DNA of 64,000 bases, taken from positions 124,001-188,000 of the forward strand of contig CAJQUW010016186.1 in the NCBI GenBank assembly GCA_907163375.1, written 5' to 3'. The notes below the pieces were generated by a model. That model had not been told where the DNA came from. It did not search any database and saw nothing but the letters and a program-made list of their open reading frames with translations. The stretch comes from Prostheceraeus crozeri (taxonomy: Eukaryota; Platyhelminthes; Polycladida; Euryleptidae). This document shows, piece after piece, positions 29,734-61,019 of this stretch. Made by a program: the position numbers and the translations under genes. Position 1 is the stretch's first letter, and every line of letters begins with the position of its first letter.

Positions 29734-31954
29734 CTATACCTTGAAGGTAAGACAGAGACGCCGATCCTTCATCAAACAAAACTGATCAATCACCTGATCA
29801 TAAAAATCAGACTTGGAGATAATTTCAGAAAACAGTTTCTTTTCAACGTCTATTAGCATCAACTGTGCAAGTCGCGTCTGACCCATTGTGTTTCTTGCAC
29901 ATGTTTTTAAGCGCTTCAGCACACTAAAAGTACGTTCACATGAAACGCTCGTCAGAGGGATAGTCAATGCCACATGCAAAAAACAAGATATATTGGGCAA
30001 TGCCTTCAAAATACCACTGACATGAAGGGCTTTCAGAAAAGTGCTAACTCCTCCAGATTCTAACTTTCGAAGTGAGTCGAAAGTCGAGTCACTCTTCAAA
30101 GTTCTCAATTCAATTTTGAATTGTATTTTATCGATACCCTTGGTCATTTCTGGGTATCGACTGAAAAACAGGTTTATCAACCGATCGAATTCATTGTCAT
30201 GCAACTGTTGATCATCAATCATAAAATACAACAAATTGATCCACTCGTGCTGGAAAAATCTTGAAATCGATCAGACAAATGACTCAAAATGACATCAATC
30301 ACTTCAAAGGAGAGTCTCCTACATTTGTCCTGGGTGCACTTTGTGTCGTCATTTGTGATATTATATCCACTGTCAGCAAACGCCTTTGCACTGGGTTGGC
30401 GTTGGCGCTTCTTTCTCTACAGCGCACTCCAAACGATCAGAAATCTCACTCCAAACATTCTCAAAAGAATCTGACTGTCTCAAAGCACTCAAGTAAGATC
30501 TGTAGTCATCCAGTCTGCTCTGAACGAGGAGAGGATCAACTTTTGGACACTGCGGGCCCATGCCTTCGCCTCGTTTCTGGTCATGGATGTGTTGGTTCGA
30601 TCATTCGAAATTTTGTCTAAATGTTGAAGTATTTCGACAAAAAAATTGTCAAAAATTTTGATTGATTTCCCTCGCGATAGCCATCGTGTCTGAGAAAGCG
30701 AAGGTATGCGCGTGGTGAGACCTGAGGCGCGCTTCGGAGAGGAGCGAAAAAAAGAGGTGATGTTCTCTAAAGTTCCAAAAAATAAATCGATATCGTCAAT
30801 TGCTGAACATGCCTGCCTGAGAACAAGTGCCAATTTGTGGGCAATGATTAAAATGTGCTGATGGCCATCGATCAAGAATTATTCTACTCACCGAGTTGTG
30901 CAAACCTGCCATGTTCTGAGCTCCATCATAAGATTGTCCAACGATATTTGAATCATCAGTAACACCGACGCTTTCAAGGCTGTTGATTACAATTTCGGCC
31001 AGAGACGCTGCTCGACGATCTTCTGAAACATCACGTAGGTCGATCATGTGTTCGTATAGTGTTCCATCATGGATGATTCGAACGGCTACACACATCTGAC
31101 TTGTGTTGCTGATGTCGGAAGTTTCATCGGCCAGAACTGCCAAACAGGAAGCTCCTTTGATCCGAGTGCAAATCTCGTTGAACAAAAGTCGATGTAGACA
31201 AAAAATTATGTCATTCTGTATATCGGGAGACAATCCACTGAATACAGCATTTTCATTTGTCAACATTTCTGCGACGATGCTGTTATTGCTGTAGTTGCTC
31301 AGTAGACGAATTTGATCGACGTAGTTTCCTCTGAAGGATTCCTCCGAAGATTCGCGATGTCCGCGAAATGGTATCCCATGCATAGCGAGGTAGACCGCAG
31401 CGTCGATGTGGTGCTGAAGGGCTATTCGGTTCTTTCGAACCTGATCGTTGTGCCGTCGGATTTGCAGTTGGCGACCTTCGACGATGGAACTTTGGATATT
31501 CACAGTCCCGATCAGTGAATATGACAACACAGCAGATACATGGTCTTTCGATCTATTGTACATCTTGATCAGGTTAGAGAGATTTCCCAAGTCCGTGACG
31601 CCGGCTGAAGTCCAACATGAAGATGTTTTCCTCTTGAAGATTAAACATAGGTAACAAAAAAACCGACGCCTAGTTTCGCATCCACAAAGCCATTCAGCAT
31701 ATCAGATTGTACTGTTTGTTGAAGTCGCATTGTCTTTTGCCATCGAAGCGAAAATGAGGATGCGGTGGGCCGTTGTTTTTCAAGCGAAGTCTGTCTGCGT
31801 AGGTAATGTCAGATTGTGGGGTGTTTAACAAAAATTCCACAGAAGTCTGTTCCGAGTTATTTGCTGCCATTCCACGTTTGGAGTTAGTGCAGAAATGTAT
31901 GCAGTCAAATGTTCTGTCCAGTTTTGTAGCCCGAAGATTTACACAAAGCTTCAA
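29734..31954 (-). pseudogene. ZMYM/DUF4371-type hAT transposase, frame-broken
   Basis: From the N-terminus: a short lead (31694-31954) with NNGPPHPHFRFDGKRQCDFN, as in TTF-type/ZMYM hAT proteins. Then DUF4371-like core (30796-31590) with AVYLAMHGIPFRGHRESSEE, CLAVLADETSDISNTSQMCV and GQSYDGAQNMAGLHNSVSRI. Next a piece (30489-30875) with TRWLSRGKSIKIFDNF, and the dimerisation domain (29734-30234) with SVSCERTFSVLKRLKTCARN. Several frame changes separate the pieces, so it is inactive as read unless some gaps are introns. Confidence 0.85.
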
Positions 31955-37005: not shown

Positions 37006-37181
37006 TTATGCAAAATAAATCGTTTTGTATAATAATAGTTTTTGCAAATCTTCAGCTACTAAACTACTTGCTTTTTGATTAGTGCTGTTTGTTTTCTTAG
37101 GAGAGAATACGTTTAAAACTCCAACTGTAGGTAAATGGACCTTTGTAGTCAAATAATGAGGGAAAGATGGGGAACCCCCAA

Positions 37182-38120
37182 TGACTCAGCGGAAATGGAG
37201 GTACGGGGCACTTTCTTCTAATTACGATTCATAAAGATGGGCGAGAGATAATCTTCGTTCCGTGCCAAGTAATAAAGAGGGAGGCGAATGTTTAATCCTG
37301 TACCAGCGGCAATCAACTTCAAAAGGTGCCGCCCACGCTGCGATGTGGTTGGACTCAAGGAAGCTGGGAATGAAATCGGAAGGCGAACGTTTAATCCTGT
37401 ACCAGCGGCCATCAACTTCAAAGACCTAAAAGCGCTCGTGGAAATAATAAAATTCATTCTAATTAGAAAATTCTCCTCTACTCGAGGGACCATAATGGCG
37501 TTAAGGTGCCGCCCACGCTGCGATGTGATTGGACTCAAGGAAGCTAGAAATGAAGGCGAACCACAAGAGGTCTCAGGACGCGGTAGACCAATGGACCATG
37601 TGCGAGCGAGTGGGCAAGGATTGGACATGAGCGAGAGACGAATCTTCTTGCCTGCCTGGGCTCCATCATCCTACGTGCTTTATGAGGAAGAGACTATATA
37701 ATCTCAGACCCCAACCCCAACGGCAGACTATCGAATCGACAAAAACTTTGCTTGTTCGAGCAGCTTCGTCTCGTTCTCTCAAAGACTGTCCATTGCCTGA
37801 TCTTCTTCGCGGAGGGAGAAAACTTGGAGTGGTCATCTCACCAAAAGGCGGTAACATTGATTCCTTGTTCATATGTAAATCTGTGACCTAAAGTCTCCTC
37901 TTAAAATTTTGGCATCTCTGCTAGCGCTAATTTAAATTTGTAACGCTTTATGCGTATTCGTATTTCGTATCATAAAGTTGAGTTATTTCTGTGTGTGTAA
38001 CGCTAACTAACTTCTGAACTATTTTACTGTGTGTTTCCTTGTTATCTATCAATCAACGCAATTGTCTAAATACTTATCTCTATATCTGCGCTATAAAACT
38101 TTGTTTTTGTTCCGTCAAAC
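37182..38120 (+). repeat. Candidate 5' LTR
   Basis: Starts TGACTCAGCGG. The first 342 bp are repeated at 51184-51525. Internally, a motif pair (ggcgaa-gtttaatcctgt..., and aggtgccgcccacgctgcga...) occurs twice (about 37283-37367 and 37384-37544), an internal U3 repeat. A TATA box lies at about 37695. The 3' limit is not proven: no second copy beyond 37523 exists in the window, and I estimate the end from the lack of coding and a possible tRNA-pairing TGG near 38130. Confidence 0.55.
37690..37705 (+). promoter_or_regulatory. TATA box of the candidate 5' LTR
   Basis: agactatataatctcag: a strong TATA-like core in an otherwise GC-moderate stretch, about 510 bp into the LTR and in the right position for U3/R. 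Transcription would start near 37725. Seen by inspection only. Confidence 0.5.
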
Positions 38121-40822
38121 GAGACTGGCAAGGTATTGTCCGGTGTTTGGGAATCGGGGTTCAGTAACTTAATCGAGACGTCGAGGAACCTATCACTGAT
38201 CTCCTTTCCTTTCCCGGACAGAACTACCGGGTCCTGGGTTTCACACCCCGGAGTCGCTTAGCCGTTGCACTTAACAGGACCATACTGACCAATTGCTAAA
38301 GCTAATACTGGGCTTCCGTCAAGGCGAACGTAACTTAAATATTACATCTCTACTTCAGCTGATTTTTTTTGTCAACGTCAAAATAATTTCGTTCTTCTTT
38401 CCCCGTGCACGACTGACCCCAAAAATCTCTCGCTCAACTGATTTCTTACCTTGTCCTGTCAGATCTGCTTCCCTCTCTCTCCTTATCTTCTTCCTCAATT
38501 CTCAATTCCTCTAAAGTTCAATTTAGCGTTAAAAGGTTTAAACCGACAAGCCGATAGTAGCCCTAATAATCTAACATACCTATCAAAACGATAGAGTCTT
38601 AAGTCGTCAACTGACATCAGCGGCAGTAACAAATACGAGTCATACGATCAAAATACGAATAATCATCGAAAGTCAAAACCGCCCAACATCTTGGAACACA
38701 GTTAAGATCACAACTGATAAATTAATAAATCTAAAACCTTAAATTACAATTGGAGGTCTTTCACTTGCACATTACCTGCCAGGCCTATCTCGTTTGACGG
38801 TTCACACTCACGTTTCTCCCATTTGCCTCCGCTAAGTTTTTCTGGCAATATCAGCGAAGTCTCACTAGGCGATCTGAGGACTAGGCCACCGAGTTTGACA
38901 GACACGTTTTGAAGTTGGTAGGAACCAGTCACGCTCGTGATATTGTACAGAGCCCGTTTTTGAGAGAGATTTATTGCCCGCCGGCGGAGGATTAATTTGG
39001 CTCTGACTCAGTGAATACACTGTGGGATTGATTTGGATTGGAATTTGCGCGCTAATTTTGGGTCCCCGACAGAGGGAAGGGGCGGCCGGAAAAGCTACCG
39101 GCCGGTAGTATTGTTTGATTGGTTGGCCAGCCCGTTGTGCACCATTGCACCGTGTGGGACTTGTGGAGTCCCCTGTTAGCCTGACTGCACAGCCTCCAAC
39201 GCATATACGCCGGTGTGCTCAGCACACATCTCAAGCTCTATACGGTACTGTATTGTACTTAGAATTCCCAGCCGAAGTCCTCAGAGATCCTAGCTAATAT
39301 ATTAGAACGCAGAGATAGAGGAGACTTAGGTTTTAGTATCTGAAATTACTTTTGCTACTGCTGCAACTACATCAAGTGTCTATCAGTCGGACATTAACTA
39401 CCGACACTAGCTATCTTAAGAATAATTCCTAATACTTGCAGACAAGTGTCTACCAGTCGTACATAACCAACAAAAAAAAAGACAAACTCTCTGAATACTT
39501 GCCTGGTCGGACGACCCCGACAATAACAAACTTTTATCTGGTAAAGCTCATTGATTTTACTTGTGCAAAGACATACTATATTTTGTAATATTTTTGCTTC
39601 GCAGTCAGTGGCATCGCTAAGGTGATACTGGGGTTTGGGTTTCTGTGTATTGTGCTTCATTCTCTGTGCATATATCTATCTATATATACCGAATACCCAT
39701 TTCTATCTAGTACTGTGCTTGTCATTTGGTTAGCGTTTTGCATTTCCATTTATCCGAATAACTCAGTGTGCGATAATCATATTGTGAGTGACTACATTAT
39801 TCTATGCTCCGCTTATAATTACATATCCCTTACATCGCTTATTTATCTCCATCCAATTTACGACTTATCCCCCTCCTTCCCTGCCAATCATCTCCATTGC
39901 CGATACGTAAATTGTGCGACTTGACTTGAGGTATATTAACACCAGTAGACGGTATCTGGCATCATCCACCACACTCAGTACTTATACGCAATCTTATAAT
40001 CAAGCAGGTACATTTATAGGTGGCGATCATTATTTTAACATTTTGTCTAGATTTCATCTAGAAGAACTAGTAATTTGCTCTGCATAACTCGCCTGCCCTC
40101 ATAAAATTTAGCAAACAATTGACTGAAGTTGGGTAGACATCAACATAATCGAACAAACGCTTTCCCGCGGACATATACATCGCCAACCGCGAACTACTAT
40201 TACACGGGAGTAATCGCATTGAAATTGCTTCCCAGTATAGTGTCATAGAGTTCAGATTCCACTACCAACAGGGTACACAACAATTATTGCAGAAAATCAC
40301 GTATTTCCTTTGTGAGGGTATTATCAAGAGCATCGATTGGGTACTATTCTTCGCGGACATATAATATCCGCGGCCATTTTCTTCTTACACAAACTGCAAT
40401 TGTTTGCTAATTATTATTTACATACATATTTTACCTCTGCCAAAACTTTACCTAACATACAGACACATCCCGTTTACCTAATTGCCATAGACAAGATTGC
40501 TACCCTTTCTCTTAAACTATCCCAAGTATAAGTCTACACCATATTTTCATTGTTGTGGGAACTTCTACTCATTCTATCAGTACAATTATCGACAGTAATT
40601 TTACTGATTATTGAACCCCTTCCTCGTTCAAGCAAATTGCGTTTTTCTCAGTGACGCTCATCTGGCCAAACTAGTAAAACTATAATTCTTAGTTTTTACT
40701 AGTCTGTCCGTTCGAATATTGCGGCTTATAGAATCAGCTCCCCACTCTTTCACACATAAAGTCTAACTTTCACGACAATGGCAAAACGAACTCGCTCGGG
40801 TAGGGAGATAGTTCTAGAGGAT
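38121..40822 (+). other. Long non-coding leader
   Basis: About 2.7 kb between LTR and the palindrome with no protein-like frame on either strand. It holds a short direct repeat, caagtgtcta-cagtcg-acataac (about 39373 and 39442). It could carry packaging signals or an intron; none can be shown. Confidence 0.45.
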
Positions 40823-41568
40823 TAGTCCGGGAGCTAGCGTGAAGTTGTGCAGGGAACGAGGTAGTACATAAAACTTTCACATAGAATAGTACACCTCTAA
40901 CCTTCTGCAAAACTTCGCGTCTGCCGGATCAGATCATTTGCTTTTCAGAAATAGAGAGGATAACACAATCCTATGTATTTCCAGTGGTAAAATTGTGACA
41001 TTTAAGGTGTTGACTCCATTTTTTCGAATTTTTGCTCATAAAGTTACACAAATTGGTATTTTGTTGAACTGGTTATTATAGAAATCATCTACAGATCATG
41101 ATCTTTTAAATGAGTTATCATTCAGTGACAGAGGATGAAGTAAAGTGTACAAACATACACTTTTCGTTAAAGTATATCAACAATTTTCCTGAAATTTCTA
41201 TGTTAAAATTTGCAGTTACACCAACGAAAAGTGTCTGTTTGTACACTTTACTTCATCCTCTGTCACTGAATGATAACTCATTTAAAAGATCATGATCTGT
41301 AGATGATTTCTATAATAACCAGTTCAACAAAATACCAATTTGTGTAACTTTATGAGCAAAAATTCGAAAAAATGGAGTCAACACCTTAAATGTCACAATT
41401 TTACCACTGGAAATACATAGGATTGTGTTATCCTCTCTATTTCTGAAAAGCAAATGATCTGATCCGGCAGACGCGAAGTTTTGCAGAAGGTTAGAGGTGT
41501 ACTATGCTATGTGAAAGTTTTATGTACTACCTCGTTCCCTGCACAACTTCGCGCTAGCTCCCGGACTA
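40823..41568. repeat. 346-bp-arm near-perfect palindrome before gag
   Basis: Arms 40823-41168 and 41223-41568 with a 54-bp spacer, starting tagtccgggagctagc and ending gctagctcccggacta. Only a few mismatches (for example catagaatag versus catagcatag). GAT flanks both sides (40820-40822 and 41569-41571), so it may be a foldback insertion with a 3-bp duplication. It ends 9 nt before the gag ATG, so the genomic RNA would carry a very stable hairpin there. No coding in the arms. Confidence 0.92.
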
Positions 41569-41577
41569 GATGTCGAA

Positions 41578-43716
41578 ATGGCTGACACTCTTCCGTCGAC
41601 ACCAGCACCTGAGCAGCAACCGAAAACAACGCCACTCACAGCTCGACGTCCGGCAGCATCTCGTCGACTACCAGCAGCCGCTGACGTACACCAAGGCCCA
41701 CGTTGCCTGCCACCAAATGCTAATATGGCCTTAACAATCACTCGATTTTCCGGAGACGACACTGGGAGTGAGACAAGTTTCGAAGACTTCATCAATAAAT
41801 ACGAGTTGGTCTCAAGAGCCTTGGGCTGGCTGGATGTGCAAAAAGCGTTTTTGCTCCCCACATATCTAAAATCCTACGCTTTAGAAATGTACCGCCAGGT
41901 TCCAGCTGAAGCTCAAAACAACTACCCACTCCTCATTCGAACTATGAAGGCACTATTGAAGACCCCTGAGTCGGAAAAATTTGCAAGCGCGGAACTGCAC
42001 ACCAGAAAACAAAAGGCAGGTGAGTCTGTCGCGGCGTTTGCGACAGACATTCAACGGTTGGTCAGAACAGCATATTCTAGTCTCGATCAGAAGGCAAAGG
42101 ACACCCTAGCCAGGGAGGCTTTTGTTTTTGGCCTACTACCCAATCTCCGGCGGGCCGTACTGCAAAACGATCCCGACACTTTGGAAGACGCAATCTCATA
42201 TGCTCGGAAAATACAGGCACAGCGACAGTTACTAGCAGATGACGATCAATCCACTTCCACTGTCGCAGCGGTACAGGCAGTTCAGGACCGCATGGAATCA
42301 CTAGTATCAGCTATACATGGCATGAACATGTACCCGACGGCTACTTATCCTGTAAGTGCCCCATCCCGGCCTTGGACGGCAGCCCCCATGCCACGGTATA
42401 CAACTGATAATAGAGTGATATGCTACAGATGTGGAAAGCCAGGCCATCTCCAACGCCAATGCGGCAGGCGAGTGACATTTGCACAACAATCTCATCGTCG
42501 TCCTCCTAACGGGTTCCAGCCGCGACCAGGTTATCAGACATCAAGATCAAGTAGTAATGAAAGACCGAATGTGAGAACAGACGCGTTCAAGAACACTCCT
42601 ACGATGGACACGACGTCGGCACCTTTCGAATCTCAAGGATCTCAACGGGGTAACGTCGAATCCCCAGCGTACCCACATTCTATTCATGTTACCAACAGGA
42701 GTCAACAACGGTATTTTTCTCCACCCCCAAGTGGGTATGGACGCCAGAACGGTAACACTAGACGCTTTTCAGGAGATTCAATATCAGGAATCTCAATGAA
42801 TCTAGGACGACAAGCGGACTCAGAAACTCTTAGCAACTCGATTTATTCCGATAATCTGCAGGAACGCGTGCACGTGCGAGATCCAAATATACTCGTGGCT
42901 GGCATAACACTTTCACGCGGTTGCCAGAGCGATCTGGAGAACGGCAGTCAACTAAAGCAAGCATATAGCAATAGTCAGGATGTGGTCAGTGACACCCATC
43001 ACATCCCCGCCGAGGTTCACAAACAAACGGAGGAAATGGCGCCTCCATCAGCACCACCACCTCCTCCGGCCCTCATAAATGACGTACAGATGCATTCAAC
43101 GCCAGCTGGCTTCGACCCTATCATCGAGGGTTTGCCTACATCCAAAAATGCTGAAACTCAAACGAATCATCAAACCACCGTACATTTATATGCCCATTGG
43201 CCAGTTATCAACATGCTAGCCCTACTGACACCATCTTCGCACGGAAAGATACTCAGAGGACTCTCCACTTTTCTCCTCATCATCGTTATCATTCTTTTGT
43301 GGCTTGGAAGAGGTGCCGAAGGGAGTGATCCAAGTCACCCCATGCCAATGATCTGCCAAACGAAAACGGGTGCCTCCACATTGGAAATACCTGACCCACC
43401 ATCCTGTGAGTCTGGTATCAAAAGAAACACGGCACCCACCAATCAGACGCATGTGTTGTACAAGATCAACATGTTGCAATACGAAAGTCCAGGTTTCCAC
43501 TGTATTAAAATCAAGCATATCTTCAAAACTCTCATATACTTTTTCGGAGACGAAAGGTTGTTGAAGAAAAACATCGTCCACATCCCTGTATCTAATCTGG
43601 AGTGTCAACAAATGATCCGGGAAAAACAATGCTCCGTGGGAAAAATGAAAAGCATTAAGGGTGGTTTGGTCCACCGATATACCAACCGTTCCTGTGTTCG
43701 GAGCAGCACCCTTTGA
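41578..43716 (+). CDS. Gag fused in frame to the start of an Env-like glycoprotein
   Basis: 712 codons. Residues ~50-240 are a Ty3-type capsid (FEDFINKYELVSRALGWLDV; then VAAFATDIQRLVRTAYSSL). One zinc knuckle, CYRCGKPGHLQRQC, lies at about 282-295. Residues 300-540 are low-complexity Gln/Pro/Ser. Then, in the same frame, comes a hydrophobic segment (562-577, STFLLIIVIILLWLG) like a signal-anchor, followed by a Cys- and Asn-glycosylation-site-rich segment (APTNQTHVLYK; FHCIKIKHIF; LECQQMIREKQCSVG). The last ~20 codons are probably beyond a frame change near 43650-43715. Gag should build the particle; the downstream part would be in the ER lumen. The start at 41578 follows the palindrome; an ATG at 41570 is in another frame. 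Confidence 0.8.
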   Translation: MADTLPSTPAPEQQPKTTPLTARRPAASRRLPAAADVHQGPRCLPPNANMALTITRFSGDDTGSETSFEDFINKYELVSRALGWLDVQKAFLLPTYLKSYALEMYRQVPAEAQNNYPLLIRTMKALLKTPESEKFASAELHTRKQKAGESVAAFATDIQRLVRTAYSSLDQKAKDTLAREAFVFGLLPNLRRAVLQNDPDTLEDAISYARKIQAQRQLLADDDQSTSTVAAVQAVQDRMESLVSAIHGMNMYPTATYPVSAPSRPWTAAPMPRYTTDNRVICYRCGKPGHLQRQCGRRVTFAQQSHRRPPNGFQPRPGYQTSRSSSNERPNVRTDAFKNTPTMDTTSAPFESQGSQRGNVESPAYPHSIHVTNRSQQRYFSPPPSGYGRQNGNTRRFSGDSISGISMNLGRQADSETLSNSIYSDNLQERVHVRDPNILVAGITLSRGCQSDLENGSQLKQAYSNSQDVVSDTHHIPAEVHKQTEEMAPPSAPPPPPALINDVQMHSTPAGFDPIIEGLPTSKNAETQTNHQTTVHLYAHWPVINMLALLTPSSHGKILRGLSTFLLIIVIILLWLGRGAEGSDPSHPMPMICQTKTGASTLEIPDPPSCESGIKRNTAPTNQTHVLYKINMLQYESPGFHCIKIKHIFKTLIYFFGDERLLKKNIVHIPVSNLECQQMIREKQCSVGKMKSIKGGLVHRYTNRSCVRSSTL

Positions 43717-44530
43717 ATGTTGTAAATGGAGGACTCAAGTAATAACCAATTGCTTCGTGGTACCAATCACAGTGTATAAACGCCACTCTTCGAAATATAT
43801 GGAAAGTTCTGCTGGAGCCGTTAAACACTGTCACTACCAGGCAGGACATTGTCACCTCAATGATTTCTCTCACATTATTTGGACACCTACGGAAGAAGAA
43901 AAGTGTAAATTTCTGAAGTGGAAAACGCTTTCCGGAGAACAGTGGGGTGACACGTGGATGTCCAGCGACGGAAACCTCGCACTCACATTTCCCACGAAAA
44001 AGGAAGCTTACCTAGACTGCCACAACCTAACCCTCCGGAGAACTCAGCAAGGAATATACGTAAGAGACTGTCCAATTTTCACATCAACCACAGCCGCAAC
44101 TGACAAGGTACAGCAACGACGACCCCGAAGAGGAGCTACAACGTCTGCGGTTGCAGCAGCGCAACTACAAGCTCTACAATTTCGCCTTACAAATTATGTG
44201 CGCTTGGCTTTTAATATGGCTGTCCAAGCGTCCTGCAAGAGCATGATGTCGGCAGTGAGCCTACTCAAAGTGGCAATTATGTCCCATCCGACCTTGGCCG
44301 CCCGCTCACTGCTAAAACGTGACTACCTCCATGCCAAAGCGGTCGGAAGACTGTTGGAGATTTTCCCGTGTACGAAGGTGTACAACTTCAGTATCCTAGC
44401 AATGGAGAAAGTTTGTCTCAGTAGAATCCCCGTGATTTACATTATAAAGGATCATCAACCCATCATGGGTTACTTAGATCCTTTTGACAAACATTATACA
44501 TCCAACAGTGACTCGTCGACCGTGCCATGA
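43649..44530 (+). CDS. Env-like glycoprotein, middle part (ectodomain)
   Basis: Continues the Env-like region in the +1 frame: FECCKWRTQVITNCFVVPIT, CHYQAGHCHLNDFSHIIWTP, a tryptophan-rich stretch with LKWKTLSGEQWGDTWMSSDG and CHNLTLRRTQQGIYVRDCPI. Near residue 155 of the 43661 frame (about 44117) lies a multibasic RRPRR followed by GATTSAVAAAQLQ, like a furin site followed by an Ala/Gly-rich fusion peptide. Several Cys and N-glycosylation sites suggest a disulphide-bonded secreted fold. A second frame change, near 44480-44530, leads to the anchor region. I do not recognise the fold class (class I or class III fusion proteins are both possible). No full protein is reconstructed here. Confidence 0.7.
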   Translation, partial: KALRVVWSTDIPTVPVFGAAPFECCKWRTQVITNCFVVPITVYKRHSSKYMESSAGAVKHCHYQAGHCHLNDFSHIIWTPTEEEKCKFLKWKTLSGEQWGDTWMSSDGNLALTFPTKKEAYLDCHNLTLRRTQQGIYVRDCPIFTSTTAATDKVQQRRPRRGATTSAVAAAQLQALQFRLTNYVRLAFNMAVQASCKSMMSAVSLLKVAIMSHPTLAARSLLKRDYLHAKAVGRLLEIFPCTKVYNFSILAMEKVCLSRIPVIYIIKDHQPIMGYLDPFDKHYTSNSDSSTVP

Positions 44531-47500
44531 AGTCACAAAAATACCACTTTGTTACCAAAATACATGCTGCAATTATCATCACACACATGGATGCCGTGTT
44601 ATGCCTCCTTCTCAAACACTGCCTCTCTACCCATCCAACTTCACGACAGTTCCTATGCTGCCACACACTATCTTTCATGATCTTGTGGTATATAATTGGA
44701 GCGACATACAGTCTCGCGAGACAATCAACGATCTCATGGGAACCCTCAACATGCATCACGAAATCCTCCAACGCTTGGGAATTTCGTCTGAGGAAAGCAC
44801 AGAACGAAACACAAAATCTCTTATAAACAGCATAGCCCACCGAGTGTCCTTCGGATTCCTCCTGGGCTTTGCAGTCACTGCTAAACAGATATGGATATTC
44901 CTGGTGTGTCTGTATGTGACTATTACTGTCTTCCTTCGCATTTGCAAGAAATGTGCCCATCGGGTAACCAGACCTGTCTGGATGCCGAACACGCTCTACC
45001 TACCTTGGCGAAGACCCAAAGGAGCACAGCAGAGACGACAAGATCAACAGCTTATCTCACCCAACCAGGAACATGTTGCAATGCTCGCTCCTCCCAATGA
45101 CAGCCCATCAGTTGACGGCTGTAGAGAGGAGCTGCCACTGACATCCATAAACCCACCAGCATATTCAACCAGCGCAACACCAACGGCACCGTTGTACCAT
45201 CCCTCATCCCTTGAGGGCAGCACACCTTCATTGCAGAGCTGCACAACTGAAGACAATGACGACAGGACACATTATCCCCACCAACCTCAATCTTCCATTT
45301 GGCCTAGATCCTACAGCACAGAGGACGTCGTTGCGGCCTGTGGACAACAAGAGAAATCTGTTATCCGCTTGCACATCAACAACAAAGTCGCTGAAGCACT
45401 ACTGGACAAAGGTGCAGGTATAACTCTAGTATCGAAAGAATTTTGCAAGAAATGGAACATCACTTGGGGGAAAACTTCCATTTCAGCGAAAAACGTTAGT
45501 GGAGGTGATTTAGAAATCGTTGGCTGCGCTACTATCCTATTGACCCTTGCGAAACGAGATATCCTTCACGATGTGGCTGTTATGAAAGATCTGCGGTTTG
45601 ACGCCATCCTGGGAGTAGACTTTTTAAACAAGATTGAATATTTCACCATCAATTACAAAAAAGGAAAAATTGAATTCCCCTCTCCCACTCCCACCAGAGT
45701 TTGTGCCGTAAAGCTTGAACATAGCGTTACCATACCACCTCGAGCAGAAATGAAAGTGGCGTCTAGATTGACGCATCCCATCTCGTCGGAAACGGTTTTA
45801 TTCCACCCTAAGCATAGTAATCGGTTATCGCAAGTACTGATCGCCAACGTTGTCGCATCGCCGGAACATCAAATCCCAATTTGTATCACCAATATGTCGC
45901 AAGCCCCAGCAAAGTTTGATCGAGGGCTAACCGTCGGCAAAGCGGAGGCTCTCACCACGGAAGATCTTATTATTGGGGAAGATCAACGTCAATCCTCAAG
46001 TGCTACCGAAATAGATGAGTTTCTAAGCCTTTTTTCAAAATCTTCGTCGCTATCGGACGGACAGCAGGCGGAATTGAACAACCTCCTCTGGCGATACCAA
46101 GACGTTTTTGCTCGGCATGAATTCGATCTCGGACAAATGGAGGGACAAATGGACAACCCTCCTGTTCGTCAACGTCCATATCGGATCCCAGAATCGCAAA
46201 AAGGAGTGATAAAAGAACATATAGACAAAATGTGCCAACACGGCATCATCCAACCAACAGCTAGTTCATTTGCGTCACCTGTCATTCTAGTAAAAAAGAA
46301 GGACGGCACCGATGGATTCTGTGTCGACTTCCAACGCCTGAATGCTATTACCAGCAACGACTATTTTCCTCTACCTCGAATTGATGAAACGGCCAACTGT
46401 CTATCCAACGCGACATACTTTTCAACTCTGGATTTGGCATCGGGATACTGGCAGATACCTATTGCCCCAGAATCAAGACCGAAGACTGCTTTTACCACCT
46501 TTGCCGGAAACTTCGAATTTTGCCGACTACCATTCGGACTCTGTAATGCGCCGGCTACATTTCAGCGAGCCGTGGAAGTCATACTAGCGGGATTGCAAAA
46601 CGAAACATGCATCGTCTACATAGACGACGTCATCTGCTACTCGTCTGATTTTTCAACTCATCTACAACACTTAGAGAAAATCCTATCGAGAATGGTGACG
46701 CACGGGGTCAAACTGAAACCGAAAAAGTGTGACTTCGCTAAACCTTCAGTCAGGTTTCTTGGTCACATCATCACACGTGATGGCCTCAAACCTGACCCCG
46801 ACAACACTAGGAAGATACGGGACTATCCCGCCCCAACATCTACTAAAGAAGTTCGCCAATTCTTAGGGCTTGCCTCTTATTACCGGCGATTTATACCCAA
46901 TTTTGCCAAAGTAGCCAACCCTTTACATCAGCTAATCAAGAGAGACACCCCTTTCATATGGGAAGCAGACCAGCAGACATCTTTCAGCGAATTGAAAACC
47001 AGATTGTGCATGGAACCCATACTTGCATACCCCGACTTTACAAAGACGTTTATACTACATACAGACGCAAGTGGAACGGCCCTTGGAGCTGTACTCAGCC
47101 AAGGCACGGGTCGTGAAGAAAGGCCTATCGCTTATGCAAGTCGAACACTCAACAAGCACGAAAGGAATTATGCCATCGTAGAACTGGAGGCCTTGGCCAT
47201 TGTATGGGCCTGCGACCATTTCCGCCCTTACCTATACGGCAGGCCATTCACAGTAATAACTGACCACAGCCCACTTCAGTGGCTGTTCACACACCGCAAT
47301 CCATCGTCTCGCCTTATTAGATGGGCACTCAAGCTGCAAGAGCTGGACATGGTCATCAGGTACCGACCTGGGAAATGCAATAATGCGGATGCCCTTTCCC
47401 GCATATCGGACGTACCGGCGGTGTCAGCGATTCAGCGTCAAGATGCCACGGAGCTAACAATCACGTCTGACTTGTCGAATGTGCGCTTAGCTCAGCAGAA

Positions 47501-47549
47501 CGATCAGCTGCTCAAAAGCATTTCTGGGAAGTTGATGGGAAAAAAGTGA
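44484..47549 (+). CDS. Env-like C-terminus fused in frame to protease, RT and RNase H
   Basis: 1021 codons. The first ~180 residues finish the Env-like region: Cys-rich (CYQNTCCNYHHTHGC), N-glycosylation sites (SNFTTV, YNWSD), a probable membrane anchor at about 123-151 (LLGFAVTAKQIWIFLVCLYV and on), then a basic cytoplasmic start RICKKCAHR. A Pro/Ser/Thr-rich linker leads to a retropepsin whose active-site motif reads LLDKGAGITLV (D308-K309-G310, not D-T/S-G), with ILGVDFL later. RT has YIDD at 712-715; RNase H has HTDASGTALGAVLSQ and VITDHSPLQWLF. It ends LMGKK at a TGA after a run of six A, where a -1 slip would enter integrase. Confidence 0.85.
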   Translation: MTNIIHPTVTRRPCHEVTKIPLCYQNTCCNYHHTHGCRVMPPSQTLPLYPSNFTTVPMLPHTIFHDLVVYNWSDIQSRETINDLMGTLNMHHEILQRLGISSEESTERNTKSLINSIAHRVSFGFLLGFAVTAKQIWIFLVCLYVTITVFLRICKKCAHRVTRPVWMPNTLYLPWRRPKGAQQRRQDQQLISPNQEHVAMLAPPNDSPSVDGCREELPLTSINPPAYSTSATPTAPLYHPSSLEGSTPSLQSCTTEDNDDRTHYPHQPQSSIWPRSYSTEDVVAACGQQEKSVIRLHINNKVAEALLDKGAGITLVSKEFCKKWNITWGKTSISAKNVSGGDLEIVGCATILLTLAKRDILHDVAVMKDLRFDAILGVDFLNKIEYFTINYKKGKIEFPSPTPTRVCAVKLEHSVTIPPRAEMKVASRLTHPISSETVLFHPKHSNRLSQVLIANVVASPEHQIPICITNMSQAPAKFDRGLTVGKAEALTTEDLIIGEDQRQSSSATEIDEFLSLFSKSSSLSDGQQAELNNLLWRYQDVFARHEFDLGQMEGQMDNPPVRQRPYRIPESQKGVIKEHIDKMCQHGIIQPTASSFASPVILVKKKDGTDGFCVDFQRLNAITSNDYFPLPRIDETANCLSNATYFSTLDLASGYWQIPIAPESRPKTAFTTFAGNFEFCRLPFGLCNAPATFQRAVEVILAGLQNETCIVYIDDVICYSSDFSTHLQHLEKILSRMVTHGVKLKPKKCDFAKPSVRFLGHIITRDGLKPDPDNTRKIRDYPAPTSTKEVRQFLGLASYYRRFIPNFAKVANPLHQLIKRDTPFIWEADQQTSFSELKTRLCMEPILAYPDFTKTFILHTDASGTALGAVLSQGTGREERPIAYASRTLNKHERNYAIVELEALAIVWACDHFRPYLYGRPFTVITDHSPLQWLFTHRNPSSRLIRWALKLQELDMVIRYRPGKCNNADALSRISDVPAVSAIQRQDATELTITSDLSNVRLAQQNDQLLKSISGKLMGKK
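47528..47549 (+). promoter_or_regulatory. Possible -1 frameshift site before integrase
   Basis: In the RT frame the codons are ATG GGA AAA AAG TGA, giving the heptamer A-AAA-AAG directly before the stop. A -1 shift continues as GTGAACATG into the integrase frame without a stop. A classical slippery heptamer next to the stop fits programmed frameshifting, but a one-base indel in the A6 run would look the same. No downstream pseudoknot was tested. Confidence 0.45.
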
Positions 47550-48976
47550 ACATGAGCGCAATCGACCAGACGGAACAATCCTACGTTCACAGAAAGTTTG
47601 GTAATTTCCGCTTACGCCATGGAACTCTCTATCGTCTGACTGAAAAAGACACACTTGTGCTGGTACTCCCACCATCGTATCGCATGCAGGTATTCTTGGA
47701 GTTCCATCATGGACAATTCGGCGGACATTTATCCGCAGAAAAGACGCTATCGCGTCTGCGAAAATTCTATTATTGGCCCAAAATGAATAGAGAGGTGAAA
47801 CGATGGGTGAAGGAATGTGTGTCGTGTAATGCAAAGAATGCACCGAAGCGAAAAATCAAAGTACCATTGAAATGCATACCAATCCCGCCCCCATTTTACC
47901 GTTGGGCGGTGGATATAACTGGACCATTTCCGAAAACGCACGATGGAAACAAATATATAGTCATATTCATCGAGTACGCCACGAAATGGGTGGAAGCTTT
48001 TCCCATTTGCGACCAAGCGGCAACGACGATTGCAAAGTTGTTTTCCGACGAAATTGTATGCCGGTATGGATGCCCCGAGATCTTGTTGTCCGACCGAGGA
48101 GCTAACTTTATGTCCTCTTTGATGAAGGAAGTTTGTCGCTTGACAAACACAAAGAAAATTTTTACAACAGCATATAACCCTAAGTGCGACGGATTAGTCG
48201 AAAAAATGTGCGGAGTGATCGTGAGGATGATTTTCCATTACGTCAGCAACGATCAGAAGGATTGGGACGACTTCCTCCCAGCAATGCTGTTCGCTTACCG
48301 GTCATCCGCTCATGCATCCACCAAAGAAAGTCCGTTCTTCCTCGTTTTCGGGAGGGATCCTCATCTCCCTTGTGACATGGCACTTCAAGAACAGTGCAGC
48401 GACCCCACAAACACATCAGTTTCGGAATACAAACAAAATTTGTCGCGTCGCTTGTCAACCGCCTGGGAGCTTGCACGCAAGCACAATGATGAAGCCCAGA
48501 CCCGCCAGAAGACCCAGTATGACAAAACAGCTACCGATACACTGGATAATCTGGCGATTGGAGATCGCGTGTACGTCTTTACGCCCCAACCGAAAAAGGG
48601 ACTTTCCAAGAAACTGCAAAAACTGTGGCGCGGCCCTTACCGTGTAGTGCAGATGACGGACACAAACGTCATGGTCGCACCAATCAATGAACCACGCGGA
48701 AAGAAGCAATGGATAAACATAAATCGATGCAAACTAGCTATTGAACCACATACTCCCGAGTTACCCGTACCTGACACCCCAGCACTAACCCAATTCTTCG
48801 ATGCGGTTCCCAAGGCGGATGAAGACAAAAAGGTCTCAGAGCTAGGTTCCGAAAATGAGAAGAAAGAAAAACCCGAACAATCACGACCCAGCACAGGGGA
48901 AACTAAGGCTTCCCCTCAGAATGCTCCGCCGCGCAAATACCCATTAAGGAATAGACAAAGACACCTCTCCTGTTAA
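47546..48976 (+). CDS. Integrase
   Basis: 476 codons. N-terminal zinc finger H-H-C-C: HHGQFGGHLSAEKTLSRLRK and CVSCNAKNAPKRK. The core has Asp in AVDITGPFPKTHDGNKYIVI (about 122), Asp in LLSDRGANFMSSLMKEVC (about 182) and Glu in CDGLVEKMCGVIVRMI about 35 residues on. A GPY/F motif follows at LWRGPYRVVQMTDTNV, then an acidic, Lys-rich C-terminal tail ending RNRQRHLSC. All catalytic residues are present, so it could integrate DNA if expressed by frameshift or from an in-frame ATG at 47552. A stop at 48974-48976 ends pol. Confidence 0.9.
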   Translation: MNMSAIDQTEQSYVHRKFGNFRLRHGTLYRLTEKDTLVLVLPPSYRMQVFLEFHHGQFGGHLSAEKTLSRLRKFYYWPKMNREVKRWVKECVSCNAKNAPKRKIKVPLKCIPIPPPFYRWAVDITGPFPKTHDGNKYIVIFIEYATKWVEAFPICDQAATTIAKLFSDEIVCRYGCPEILLSDRGANFMSSLMKEVCRLTNTKKIFTTAYNPKCDGLVEKMCGVIVRMIFHYVSNDQKDWDDFLPAMLFAYRSSAHASTKESPFFLVFGRDPHLPCDMALQEQCSDPTNTSVSEYKQNLSRRLSTAWELARKHNDEAQTRQKTQYDKTATDTLDNLAIGDRVYVFTPQPKKGLSKKLQKLWRGPYRVVQMTDTNVMVAPINEPRGKKQWININRCKLAIEPHTPELPVPDTPALTQFFDAVPKADEDKKVSELGSENEKKEKPEQSRPSTGETKASPQNAPPRKYPLRNRQRHLSC

Positions 48977-49354
48977 GCCGTATGGGATATACATACCTAC
49001 TGCAAATTTGCTTCGCTTACCTGCCAACAACTTACACACTTTCCCACTAAAAGACGCCCTAAATTGCTGTATTCTCTCCAATCTCTATTAACGATCATTA
49101 CCGCACCCTCCCCCGCTTCATGCTACTTGCGTCTAGTTTGGGTAATATCGCCAATTTGAGGAGACTTCGTGACTGATAGGGCACCCTACTATACCTTTAA
49201 TGTTTCATATTTCTGTCTCATCTCCCTCCCAACTAACTTCAGTACGTGCTGCTCCCTTACATCACCACATTACTTTTGACTTCTATTTTATAAATTCCAT
49301 AAAACTGTTATGTCTCTGTAAGAAAAAGTTGAACTGCAATCGATTGACGAACTT
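48977..49354 (+). other. Non-coding spacer after integrase
   Basis: About 380 bp of pyrimidine-rich sequence without a protein-like frame. It may act as the branch region for the splice acceptor at 49355-49371. Likewise 50688-51183 is non-coding 3' sequence. I do not see a clear polypurine tract just before the right terminal repeat. Confidence 0.5.
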
Positions 49355-50687
49355 GTCTGCCTTTTACAGGCTATTCTAGTAGTATCCGTACAAGGGGCCA
49401 TCCAGCCCTCCGGCGAGGTCGTGACCGATCAGCAGTCCGGCCCGGTTGAGGTCAGTGTGTTGCTGACCATTAGAAGCGAGGCGGGTATGTTGGAGCCTGT
49501 CCGTCTGATCTCCTCCCTTATCCAACCAGTGGGACCAATACCGTGGTACGAGACGGCCACAATCCACGGGATTAGCCTGCGTTCCCTCGAAGATGCTCCC
49601 ACGTGGCAGGACTTTGGAAGGGAGATTGCGTGGAGGTTGGGAACCACTCCGCTTACACACGTTTATGCCAAAACAATGGCGTCGCTAGTTTGGATACCGA
49701 CGATACCGTGTCTGCGGTCGATCCCTGCATCGGCCGTGCAACTGGGACCATGGGCGGAACGTGTGGAGGCGAAGTGGTTCCACGACGCACTCCAACGCTG
49801 GAATGAGGGGTCCACGTGCCTGCCTTGCCAGTATGCACACACAATATCGGCCGAACCGAGCCCCGGACTTAGCAAGAGAGCACTACGGTGTATTTTGCGC
49901 GTCAAAAGACGCCGCAGTGCTCGTGGCGGCCCTCAACGCCGGAGTGGCAGTCCACCCCTTTCCGGACTACATTCCGAAACCAGAAGAGGAGAGACGCGTA
50001 CTGCCGATTCAAGCAGGCTTGGGACCACACGACGATGTCCTTCTGGTGACGGAGGAAGAGATGGAGGCCGGAAGTCAGAACGACTTCAAACGGGCGTTGC
50101 GCGCCACCCGGGATTTTGTCATCAAGGGCTCCGGACACGTACCGCACGTTGCCCTCCTGGGAACGGAGTCAGTGGAGACGATTCTTCGTTGTGCCATCCT
50201 GTCGGCGGTGCGGTCCAGGAGGAGACGACCACAGTGGCCCGCTATCACCGACAGGATCACGGAGGTGGTGCGGACATTCCACCGCATGGGCACACCGCCG
50301 TTGTGGCCACGAAAAATCGCTCGGCCGTCCTCGGTGCTCATCATAACGGCTAACAAACATTTAACCCTCGCGGACAGCATCATAATTTATATCCCGCTGG
50401 GCCTGATCCCATCCGCCAACATCACGGATAGACTCAAGATGACAGCGAGGCCGCTGGGGGCTAACTATCTGAATTGCTGTGTGGGAGTATTCGTCCTCCC
50501 GGAGGACCGACGAACGATCTCCATAGAATGGCTCCAGCGAGCGCGGGAGGCAGTGCAGGACATTTACCCTGCACTCCCGTGGGTGTTTGTGCATAACCAT
50601 CTGCGGGCGATTGTGGACATCTCTCTCCGCGTCGTCCGTCAAATAACCCCGGCTACCATTCGGGACTTTCGACGAGAATATCGTTGA
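49322..50687 (+). CDS. Unrecognised 3' frame of the retroelement, one frame change
   Basis: The open frame from 49322 (protein-like from about 49370: AIQPSGEVVTDQQ, VSVLLTIRSEAGMLEPV, HVYAKTMASLVWIPTIPC) runs into a second frame, 49761-50687, with AVLVAALNAGVAVHPFPDY, HDDVLLVTEEEMEAGSQND, HVALLGTESVETILRCAIL and DSIIIYIPLGLIPSANIT. The likely switch is between 49760 and 49960. Codon use and base composition are clearly more GC-rich than gag-pol, hinting at a separate origin. I recognise no family; it lacks a signal peptide or obvious anchor, so it is not an ordinary env. It lies where retroelements keep env or accessory genes. Confidence 0.5.
49355..49371 (+). promoter_or_regulatory. Splice-acceptor-like sequence before the 3' frame
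   Basis: gtctgccttttacag followed by gc: a pyrimidine tract and AG, immediately before the 3' reading frame becomes protein-like. A subgenomic spliced mRNA like those of retroviral 3' genes would place the frame at its 5' end. No donor was identified. Confidence 0.4.
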
Positions 50688-51183
50688 GTTTTTGTTTTGC
50701 TCTGCTTGCCTTCTGTGTCTTTTGTGTACACTATTATTTTTTACAGTTACATAATCTAAGTAACACCGTCATCGTTTTCCTTTCGACCTATAATGTACAC
50801 CGTGTCACAGCGTATCACTGACTGGTGTCTTTGTAACTATTAGTACTAATAGCTATTGTCGTTTTGCACAAGTAATCCTGGTCTCGCTTTACCAATTGCC
50901 AGAGACAATCTGCTCTCGTGCCCCTGTTCCCTTCCAGATGATACATATCTTCCTTCTTCTGCGACGAGGACGTCGCTCCTCACGGTGGATGGAAATGTAA
51001 TCGTAATTCTTGCGGTTTAAATTCGAAATGATGTTTTGTATTTCACTATCGAAATCGGATCCTATGGACATTTTATTGGAACATTTATTCCTAATTGGAA
51101 AATTCTGCTCCACTGGCTGTGGATTTCACTGCATTTTCGGCATCAGAGGACGAAAGGTCAAGTCGCAACTTTCTGAGAATTGA

Positions 51184-51525
51184 TGACTCAGCGGAAATGG
51201 AGGTACGGGGCACTTTCTTCTAATTACGATTCATAAAGATGGGCGAGAGATAATCTTCGTTCCGTGGCAAGTAATAAAGAGGGAGGCGAATGTTTAATCC
51301 TGTACCAGCGGCAATCAACTTCAAAAGGTGCCGCCCACGCTGCGATGTGGTTGGACTCAAGGAAGCTGGGAATGAAATCGGAAGGCGAACGTTTAATCCT
51401 GTACCAGCGGCCATCAACTTCAAAGACCTAAAAGCGCTCGTGGAAATAATAAAATTCATTCTAATTAGAAAATTCTCCTCTACTCGAGGGACCATAATGG
51501 CGTTAAGGTGCCGCCCATGCTGCGA
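51184..51525 (+). repeat. Truncated 3' terminal repeat
   Basis: Matches 37182-37523 with about two differences (for example cgtggcaag versus cgtgccaag). It ends at tgctgcga; the next bases (cacacacatcacatc) differ from the 5' copy, which continues. The U3 part alone is therefore present here. Confidence 0.85.
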
Positions 51526-52150
51526 CACACACATCACATCACTTCTGCAGATTCAGATGCATAGCATGCTGCTAAAAGTGAACTGAATTTACTATATAAT
51601 TGGTTACTAGGTTGTCATACAAGGTGTCATCGTCATAAAATTAGAGCGGAGAGAAGAGCTTTTTTAACTTTAAAAGCTTTTTAAACTTAAGACTTAAAAA
51701 CTAGCGAGCACTCAAAAGATTATTTCATTTGAAGACAATTGTGAAATGCGGATTTCAATCTTGTGAGATGGTGTGACAGTTTTCCTATGTATAAAAATAC
51801 TGTCGCGTGAAAGAGACTATAACAATAATGTTTTTGATGCATCAAATATATCAAAATGCATAGATAGGAATGAGAAGAGAGACGGGATCGAACAAGGAGA
51901 AAAGGAGAATAAGATAAAGTGGAAAATAACAGAGAAGAGAAAGAGTTGAAGGAGAATTGAAAGGAAGAATTGAAAAGAATTGAAAGGAGAAAATGAGAGA
52001 TACGAAGGAAAAGAAGTGGAATAGCAAGTGAACAACTTGATGAAGAAAAGAGAGAGAGATAGATGAAAGAGAATGGAGAGAGGAGGAAGCAGAGAAAGAG
52101 AGAAGAGGAAGAGGAAAAGAGAAATGTAGGGGAGGTTTATGAATTTTTTT
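51526..52150. other. Purine-rich low-complexity DNA
   Basis: 51526-51840 shows nothing recognisable beyond an AT-rich stretch with taaaagctttttaaac. 51860-52135 is almost all A and G on the plus strand (gagaga, ggaaag runs). The two hydrophobic Phe/Ser/Leu frames on its minus strand are by-products of that composition. Confidence 0.7.
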
Positions 52151-61010: not shown

Positions 61011-61019
61011 GGCAGAATT

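What the first reader, a model, noticed from the sequence alone, without database searches (positions are those of the whole stretch)
41578..47549. Envelope-like glycoprotein encoded between Gag and Pol, fused in frame to both
The gag frame (41578-43716) runs without a stop from capsid and zinc knuckle into a signal-anchor-like segment and a Cys/N-glycan-rich region. A separate frame (44484-47549) runs without a stop from a membrane anchor and basic cytoplasmic start into protease-RT-RNase H. Env is known downstream of pol in retroviruses and errantiviruses. A Gag-Env-Pol order would be a different architecture. Topology is coherent: signal-anchor in, ectodomain lumenal, second anchor out, leaving Gag and Pol both cytosolic. 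A multibasic RRPRR before an Ala-rich stretch suggests a furin site and fusion peptide.
Basis: partly seen in the sequence, partly recalled or inferred. Interest (0 to 1): 0.9.

Follow-up and report, generated by a model that had tools for sequence, protein, structure and literature searches.

The report
Retroelement with Gag-Env-Pol gene order
This genome holds a family of virus-like jumping genes that carry an envelope-like (viral surface protein) gene between the capsid and enzyme genes in one continuous reading frame, an order I did not find described for this group, so all three would likely be made as a single protein chain threaded through a membrane.

Summary
The window copy is one damaged member of a Ty3/gypsy-type LTR family. 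Its env-like block, between Gag (CCHC) and protease, is split over three frames; in other copies of the same genome it is continuous with both neighbours. Seven fetched copies are open in one frame from within the capsid region through env into protease, and one subfamily-D frame is open for 2,311 aa from Gag to integrase. In 45 loci read, 40 have the protease start, and all 40 have the env C-terminal piece directly upstream. Starting from protease-RT instead, env lies upstream in 43 of 44 relatives at 40% identity or more, 19 of 26 at 30-39% and 4 of 20 below 30%. Env is under purifying selection (dN/dS 0.11-0.17) and matches Pfam's Monjiviricetes fusion glycoprotein (best E 5e-13). It keeps two membrane segments, 19 invariant cysteines, a basic cleavage site and PPxY/P(T/S)AP motifs. 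ICTV places metavirus Env downstream of integrase. One-chain translation, topology, fold and activity are inferred; the host is unidentified.

The parts
37181..38748 (+). 5' LTR, lacking its first ~187 bases; ends ...TTACA
   Evidence: Alignment to LTR pairs of C6031 and C3635
38751..38764 (+). Primer-binding-site-like stretch two bases after the LTR
   Evidence: By inspection; tRNA partner not tested
40823..41568 (.). Palindromic insertion (two 346-nt arms, 99% complementary, 54 nt apart) just before gag; not part of the family
   Evidence: Inverted repeat I1
41578..43248 (+). Gag: capsid region, CCHC knuckle (42421-42462), long linker with a PSAP (43045-43056)
   Evidence: PF00098 E 4.1e-5; motif positions; capsid piece conserved in 33 of 45 loci
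43249..43305 (+). Predicted signal-anchor
   Evidence: Hydrophobic segment, mean hydropathy 2.57 in the sister copy L003
43306..43716 (+). Env N-terminal piece (gag frame)
   Evidence: PF00974 E 0.0084
43649..44530 (+). Env middle piece (frame 2), with RRPRR at 44117-44131
   Evidence: PF24664 E 1.8e-4; position
44478..44936 (+). Env C-terminal piece (pol frame), second membrane segment 44889-44936
44937..45350 (+). Env tail, predicted cytosolic: PPAY 45153-45164, PTAP 45180-45191, WPRSYS 45300-45317
45351..47549 (+). Protease, RT (YIDD 46617-46628), RNase H; protease catalytic motif altered in this copy
   Evidence: PF00077, PF00078, PF17917; Ty3 nearest in PDB
47471..48976 (+). Integrase (zinc domain, core, GPY at 48632-48640), out of frame with RT-RNase H in this copy
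   Evidence: PF17921, PF00665
49322..50687 (+). Accessory ORF (two overlapping frames here, one 441-aa frame in L046), in the place where env usually lies
   Evidence: no Pfam match
50984..50995 (+). Purine-rich tract before the 3' LTR
   Evidence: By inspection
50996..51527 (+). 3' LTR, cut after ~530 of about 1,770 bases

Best explanation
This is one damaged copy of a large family of Ty3/gypsy-type LTR retroelements in which an envelope-like glycoprotein that resembles class III viral fusion proteins lies between Gag and Pol in one continuous reading frame, and which would likely be translated as a single membrane-threaded Gag-Env-Pol polyprotein. Shown: gene order, one frame in sister copies, conservation, purifying selection, LTR structure and recent insertion of sister copies. 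Inferred: the ribosome makes Gag in the cytosol; the first hydrophobic segment acts as a signal-anchor that sends the ectodomain into the ER lumen; the second stops transfer, so protease, RT, RNase H and integrase end up in the cytosol. Signal peptidase and a furin-like protease would cut on the lumenal side, and the element's own protease on the cytosolic side (perhaps near WPRSYS and in the Gag linker). Gag would first stay tethered by a C-terminal membrane segment, as flavivirus and hepatitis C capsids do. The PPxY and P(T/S)AP pair in the Env tail would recruit host ESCRT proteins, so that enveloped particles bud with Gag, Env and Pol brought to one membrane on one chain, without frameshifting or splicing.
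For: Order capsid-env-protease: env directly upstream in 40 of 40 loci with a protease start, of 45 read. One open frame from within the capsid region through env into protease in L003, L009, L015, L040, L061, L062, L063; 2,311 aa Gag to integrase in a D copy. From pol: env upstream in 66 of 90, 28 of them in the same open frame. dN/dS 0.148 (A-A2), 0.11, 0.11, 0.17 (within D). PF24664 in 7 of 7 members of A2 and of A3, two above the curated cut-off. Two hydrophobic segments, 18-23 ectodomain cysteines, 5-7 N-X-S/T sites, 19 invariant cysteine columns. PPxY 38 of 40, P(T/S)AP 36 of 40. LTR pairs 98.5-99.7% identical, 4-bp duplications. No in-frame Met within 60 residues before the signal-anchor in L021, L025, L040.
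Against: No RNA or protein data. No fold shown: single-sequence model at pLDDT 39.3, no PDB sequence match. Most PF24664 scores shown are below the curated cut-off (6 of 8 proteins). L003, L009, L015 have a Met 5-17 residues before the signal-anchor, so a separate Env start is possible there. WPRSYS is in 31 of 40 copies and absent from L061-L063. Many copies are broken, as usual for old elements. The gag capsid tree does not recover A+A2+B. 24 of 90 pol matches have no env match in the capped lists.
Confidence: 0.74

Rival explanations
1. The frame is continuous in the DNA, but Env is made separately, from a spliced mRNA or an internal start, and Pol by another route; the in-frame fusion is tolerated rather than used.
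For: Env of other retroelements is usually expressed from spliced messages (stated for LTR-retrotransposon ORF3s in passages of PMC5408684). L003, L009 and L015 have an in-frame Met 5-17 residues before the signal-anchor.
Against: No such Met within 60 residues in L021, L025, L040. No stop separates the genes in intact copies of several lineages. Protease lies downstream of Env, so an Env-only product would need its own end as well.
Confidence: 0.18
2. The block is a membrane or sorting module, not an entry protein: a captured glycoprotein that now only anchors Gag-Pol to membranes.
For: No fusion activity or fold has been shown; a basic site alone proves nothing.
Against: A full ectodomain with 19 invariant cysteines, a basic cleavage site in 7 of 8 representatives and dN/dS of 0.11-0.17 are more than an anchor needs.
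Confidence: 0.07
3. Chance neighbour, nested insertion or assembly artefact: an env-like piece landed in one dead gypsy copy.
For: The window copy is broken: frame changes, truncated ends, a palindromic insertion before gag.
Against: Same order in 40 of 40 loci with a protease start and in three deeper lineages; purifying selection; env and protease trees agree on the clades tested.
Confidence: 0.01

Closest known systems
Metaviridae with env: Errantivirus/gypsy (PMC7879559, whole text)
   Same: Ty3/gypsy-type Pol order, CCHC Gag, LTRs, a captured viral glycoprotein
   Different: There Env is encoded downstream of integrase; here it lies between Gag and protease in one frame, and the place after Pol holds an unrelated accessory ORF. 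No Baculo_F match in Pfam (that errantivirus Env is baculovirus-like is stated in PMC12440569)
Atlas virus, hookworm Belpaoviridae (PMC9094657, passages)
   Same: Gag, Pol and Env in one polyprotein without stops, with a captured negative-strand RNA virus glycoprotein
   Different: Order Gag-Pol-Env with Env at the C-terminus; class II phlebovirus-like Env; BEL/Pao Pol
Anakin, mosquito BEL/Pao with a chuvirus glycoprotein (PMC7642597, passages and one section; follow-up PMC10084718, passages)
   Same: Captured glycoprotein of the Jingchuvirales kind inside LTR boundaries
   Different: Pao rather than Gypsy element; the position of its glycoprotein was not stated in what I read. The follow-up reports no clear evidence of such capture by Gypsy elements
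Bdelloid TelKA elements (PMC5408684, passages)
   Different: Paramyxovirus class I F-type protein as ORF3 downstream of pol
Flavivirus and hepatitis C virus polyproteins (works-like only; PMC5402940, start of abstract in a listing; rest recalled)
   Same: Capsid, signal peptide, glycoprotein and cytosolic enzymes in one chain cut by signal peptidase and a viral protease
   Different: Unrelated proteins and replication; the resemblance is of topology and is inferred here

Membership tests
Metaviridae (Ty3/gypsy) | RT-RNase H of Ty3 type | tested here: met
   PDB: Ty3-G Gag-Pol 7q5b E 9.7e-88, the next different kind E 1.2e-50. No RT tree with reference elements was made
Metaviridae (Ty3/gypsy) | Order protease-RT-RNase H-integrase, CCHC Gag | tested here: met
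Metaviridae (Ty3/gypsy) | LTRs with TG...CA ends, short target duplication, PBS and PPT | tested here: met
   C6031 and C3635: 4-bp duplications ATAT and CTAG; PBS and PPT by inspection. The ends of the subfamily D pair were not resolved
Metaviridae (Ty3/gypsy) | Env, where present, downstream of integrase (ICTV profile) | tested here: not met
   Env between Gag and protease (profile text)
Errantivirus | Baculovirus-F-like Env as a third gene | tested here: not met
   Pfam scans list PF24664, PF00974 and PF00606, no Baculo_F
Belpaoviridae with captured glycoprotein (Anakin, Atlas) | BEL/Pao Pol | tested here: not met
   Ty3 nearest; no BEL/Pao reference was compared directly
Class III fusion glycoproteins (Monjiviricetes, gB type) | Sequence-profile match | tested here: met
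   PF24664 in 7 of 7 of A2 and of A3; above the curated cut-off in L021 and L025 only; PF00974 above cut-off in L062
Class III fusion glycoproteins (Monjiviricetes, gB type) | Class III fold and fusion loops | tested here: inconclusive
   Model too poor (pLDDT 39.3); PDB profile search empty
Class III fusion glycoproteins (Monjiviricetes, gB type) | Membrane fusion activity | not testable with these tools
   Needs an experiment

The most novel reading that the evidence does not exclude
A deep clade of Ty3-type retroviruses captured a class III glycoprotein once and built a Gag-Env-Pol polyprotein that crosses the membrane out and back, replacing frameshifting and splicing by topology and delivering capsid, spike and enzymes to the budding site on one chain. 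It would be a new way to organise an enveloped reverse-transcribing virus.
Probability: 0.62. Interest if true: 0.92.

Novelty: new variant of a known kind. Interest (0 to 1): 0.87.

Why it matters
Gag-Pol-Env order is treated as a fixed feature of enveloped retroelements; the ICTV profile of this family says Env is encoded downstream of integrase. A selected, multi-lineage Gag-Env-Pol family would show that envelope capture can happen inside the polyprotein. It would make testable how capsid, spike and polymerase are sorted across a membrane from one chain. It would also mean that env searches restricted to the sequence after pol can miss whole clades.

Tried and rejected
Protein database: the Env C piece within the Pol frame (666 candidates, none), the Env N piece within the Gag frame (189 candidates, none), the seven-env alignment A2 (7,997 candidates scored, none). 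Viral contigs: the window's middle piece, A2 and A3, with 1, 166 and 114 pattern matches and no relative confirmed. PDB by sequence: one chance-level match each for the middle and N pieces, none for the accessory ORF, none with the A2 profile. Structure of the window's middle piece: mean pLDDT 39.3, so no fold search was run. tRNA and Rfam scans of the window: nothing. Troyka retroelements were considered and dropped: the part of PMC12440569 that I read (parts 1 and 2 of 5) says they encode no envelope. Programmed frameshifting inside env was dropped because sister copies are continuous. Papers: nine searches; the term gag-env-pol is in no held paper, and no listed title or abstract start describes this order. 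Seven papers were opened (PMC12440569, PMC7642597, PMC5408684, PMC10084718, PMC9094657, PMC7879559 and no other for its text; PMC5402940 was seen only as a listing), so six in all; the rest were seen as listings. Most subscription journals and all separately held bioRxiv preprints are outside the library.

Table cautions: the rows knuckle_linker and link were translated out of frame and were not used. In one search I had typed only part of the list; one search repeats the count with all 90 rows that start by residue 17 of the query, leaving out 36 of 126. The env lists behind one search are capped and eight of its 66 positives rest on loci read directly; a missing env there is not proof of absence, and the 24 misses were not read.
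Full report
What is in the window. At 41.5-49.0 kb on the plus strand lie a Gag frame with a CCHC knuckle, an env-like block, protease, RT, RNase H and integrase. The env-like block is spread over three frames: the gag frame, which carries the first hydrophobic segment; 43649-44530, which carries RRPRR; and the pol frame, which carries the second hydrophobic segment. Scanned apart, the N piece gives a weak match to the rhabdovirus G fusion domain (PF00974, E 0.0084), the middle piece matches PF24664, Monjiviricetes fusion glycoprotein (E 1.8e-4), and the C piece has no match.

Other copies. The window is part of a 2.05-Gb assembly of 14,165 contigs. DNA of 43500-44500 has 40 matches there: ten, the window included, at 98-100% identity, four at 85-91%, one short one at 86%, eleven at 71-74%, four at 67-68% and ten at 64-65%. 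I read 45 loci (L001-L045) with six-frame comparison of the window's separate pieces. Forty of the 45 have the protease start, and in all 40 the env C-terminal piece lies directly upstream, 331-426 bases away. Of the other five, L007 and L008 have env but no protease match, and L032, L034 and L035 match only inside protease and show no env. The capsid piece was found in 33 of 45, always upstream of env. The window itself is one of the 45. Because 37 of the 45 were picked by an env match, I also started from pol.

Starting from pol. A DNA search with protease-RT gave 40 matches; eight contigs without an env match were read (L029-L036), and all five of these that have the protease start also have env sequence before it. 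A protein query of protease plus RT from subfamily D gave 126 matches, of which 90 include the protease start. I compared them with env matches from two env queries and with eight loci read directly. Env lies within 1.5 kb upstream in 66 of 90, and in 28 of these env and protease-RT share one open frame. By protease-RT identity the fraction is 43 of 44 at 40% or more, 19 of 26 at 30-39% and 4 of 20 below 30%. This gradient fits one capture in the ancestor of a deep clade, with elements lacking this env outside it. The 24 misses are not proof of absence, since the env lists are capped and those places were not read. None of the 45 loci read has Gag joined directly to protease.

One frame. The frame is open from within the capsid region through env into protease in L003 (1,332 aa, the whole stretch), L009 (1,328 aa, the whole stretch), L015 (1,443 aa) and L040 (1,592 aa within the stretch). 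In the L040 copy the same absolute frame continues through RNase H and integrase to 2,311 aa. Three deeper lineages, with env at 38, 37 and 34% identity to subfamily D, show the same: L061 (1,666 aa) and L062 (1,733 aa) over the whole stretch, and L063 (1,417 aa), which has one stop early in the capsid piece. The break points in the window copy are therefore private to it. It also has an altered protease motif (unlike all 36 other copies where the motif was read; in three it was not), a third frame change in Pol, and LTRs cut at both outer ends.

Selection and history. Env, from just after the first membrane segment to the second, gives dN/dS 0.148 between A and A2, and 0.11, 0.11 and 0.17 within D; between A and B pN is 0.12 with synonymous sites saturated (pS 0.79). 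The env middle, env C and protease trees, rooted on D, all recover (A,A2), A+A2+B and A+A2+B+C, with support from 0.70 to 1.0. The gag capsid tree recovers (A,A2) and A+A2+B+C but not A+A2+B. LTR pairs are 99.5% identical (C6031) and 98.5-99.7% (C3635, in two pieces), with TG...CA ends and 4-bp duplications ATAT and CTAG. A subfamily D pair is 99.6% identical, its ends not resolved. These insertions are thus recent.

What the env block is. Seven env proteins read from their own open frames (A2) all match PF24664; the best are L021 at E 5.4e-13 and 48.2 bits and L025 at 2.4e-12 and 46.1 bits, against a cut-off of 27, while the other scores shown (19.7-26.2 bits in six proteins) are below it. 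A second set of seven with the deep lineages (A3, four members shared with A2) again gives 7 of 7; PF00974 appears in 5 of 7 and herpesvirus gB (PF00606) in 3 of 7. Nineteen cysteine columns are invariant in A3. R-x-[KR]-R lies at residue 291-304 in seven of eight representatives (L003, L009, L015, L021, L061, L062, L063); L025 keeps only RKR. The gB-type match starts just after this site, which fits gB, where a furin site precedes domain III (recalled); a fusion peptide right after the site is then unlikely. No fold was shown.

The tail. Between the second membrane segment and protease, PPxY is found in 38 of 40 copies and P(T/S)AP in 36 of 40. In the five representatives the two start 9 residues apart (in L009 the second has decayed). 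Shuffled tails have PPxY in 3-8% of cases, and none of 20,000 trials had it in all five. WPRSYS just before protease is in 31 of 40. L061 and L062 have P(T/S)AP and then PPPY; L063 has P(T/S)AP alone, and none of the three has WPRSYS. In retroviruses such motifs recruit ESCRT (general knowledge). Their place here, on the predicted cytosolic side of Env, fits enveloped budding.

How it probably works. Gag in the cytosol, signal-anchor, lumenal ectodomain, stop-transfer segment, cytosolic Pol: the two hydrophobic segments and the domains on either side make this the simplest topology, and it is the logic of flavivirus polyproteins. It is a prediction. The absence of an in-frame Met within 60 residues before the signal-anchor in L021, L025 and L040 speaks against a separate Env start; in L003, L009 and L015 a Met lies 5-17 residues before it.

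Compared with what is known. By RT the element is Ty3-like. The ICTV profile says metavirus Env is encoded downstream of integrase. Atlas virus is a single Gag-Pol-Env polyprotein with a class II Env at its end. Anakin joined a chuvirus glycoprotein to a Pao element, and the follow-up found no clear evidence of such capture by Gypsy elements. The nine paper searches listed nothing that describes a Gag-Env-Pol order. In the usual env place these elements have another ORF, 441 aa in an A copy and about 260 aa in D, related at 23% identity over 184 aa, with a profile score of 16.3 bits against 6.5 for the best of 2,000 shuffles, and without a Pfam match.

Limits. Expression, processing, fold and fusion activity are untested.

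Noticed in passing
window 40823-41568: Near-perfect palindromic element (346-nt arms) inserted 9 bases before the gag ATG; the flanking TA suggests a mariner-type target duplication (by inspection).
   Followed up: partly
window 49322-50687; L046 3447-4769 and L056 2483-3262 (element orientation): Accessory ORF after integrase, shared by subfamilies A and D at low identity, without Pfam match: an unknown conserved protein in the place where env usually lies.
   Followed up: partly
L052 1942-5279, L047 4052-5199: Next to two subfamily D copies lie ORFs of another large element; L052 3303-5279 matches DNA_pol_B_2 (E 1.7e-12), perhaps a Maverick/Polinton (recalled). The L047 ORFs had no Pfam match.
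   Followed up: partly
G000:C272, about 43-60 kb (L004, L006): Two subfamily A copies lie about 12.7 kb apart in the same orientation, possibly a tandem that shares an LTR.
   Followed up: no
window 57293-61318 (minus strand): Penelope-like ORF with RT and GIY-YIG domains, next to a 616-aa ORF without Pfam match.
   Followed up: no
window 13577-15610, 30796-31701 (minus strand): hAT dimerisation-domain ORF and a DUF4371 ORF: further transposon remains in a repeat-rich window.
   Followed up: no
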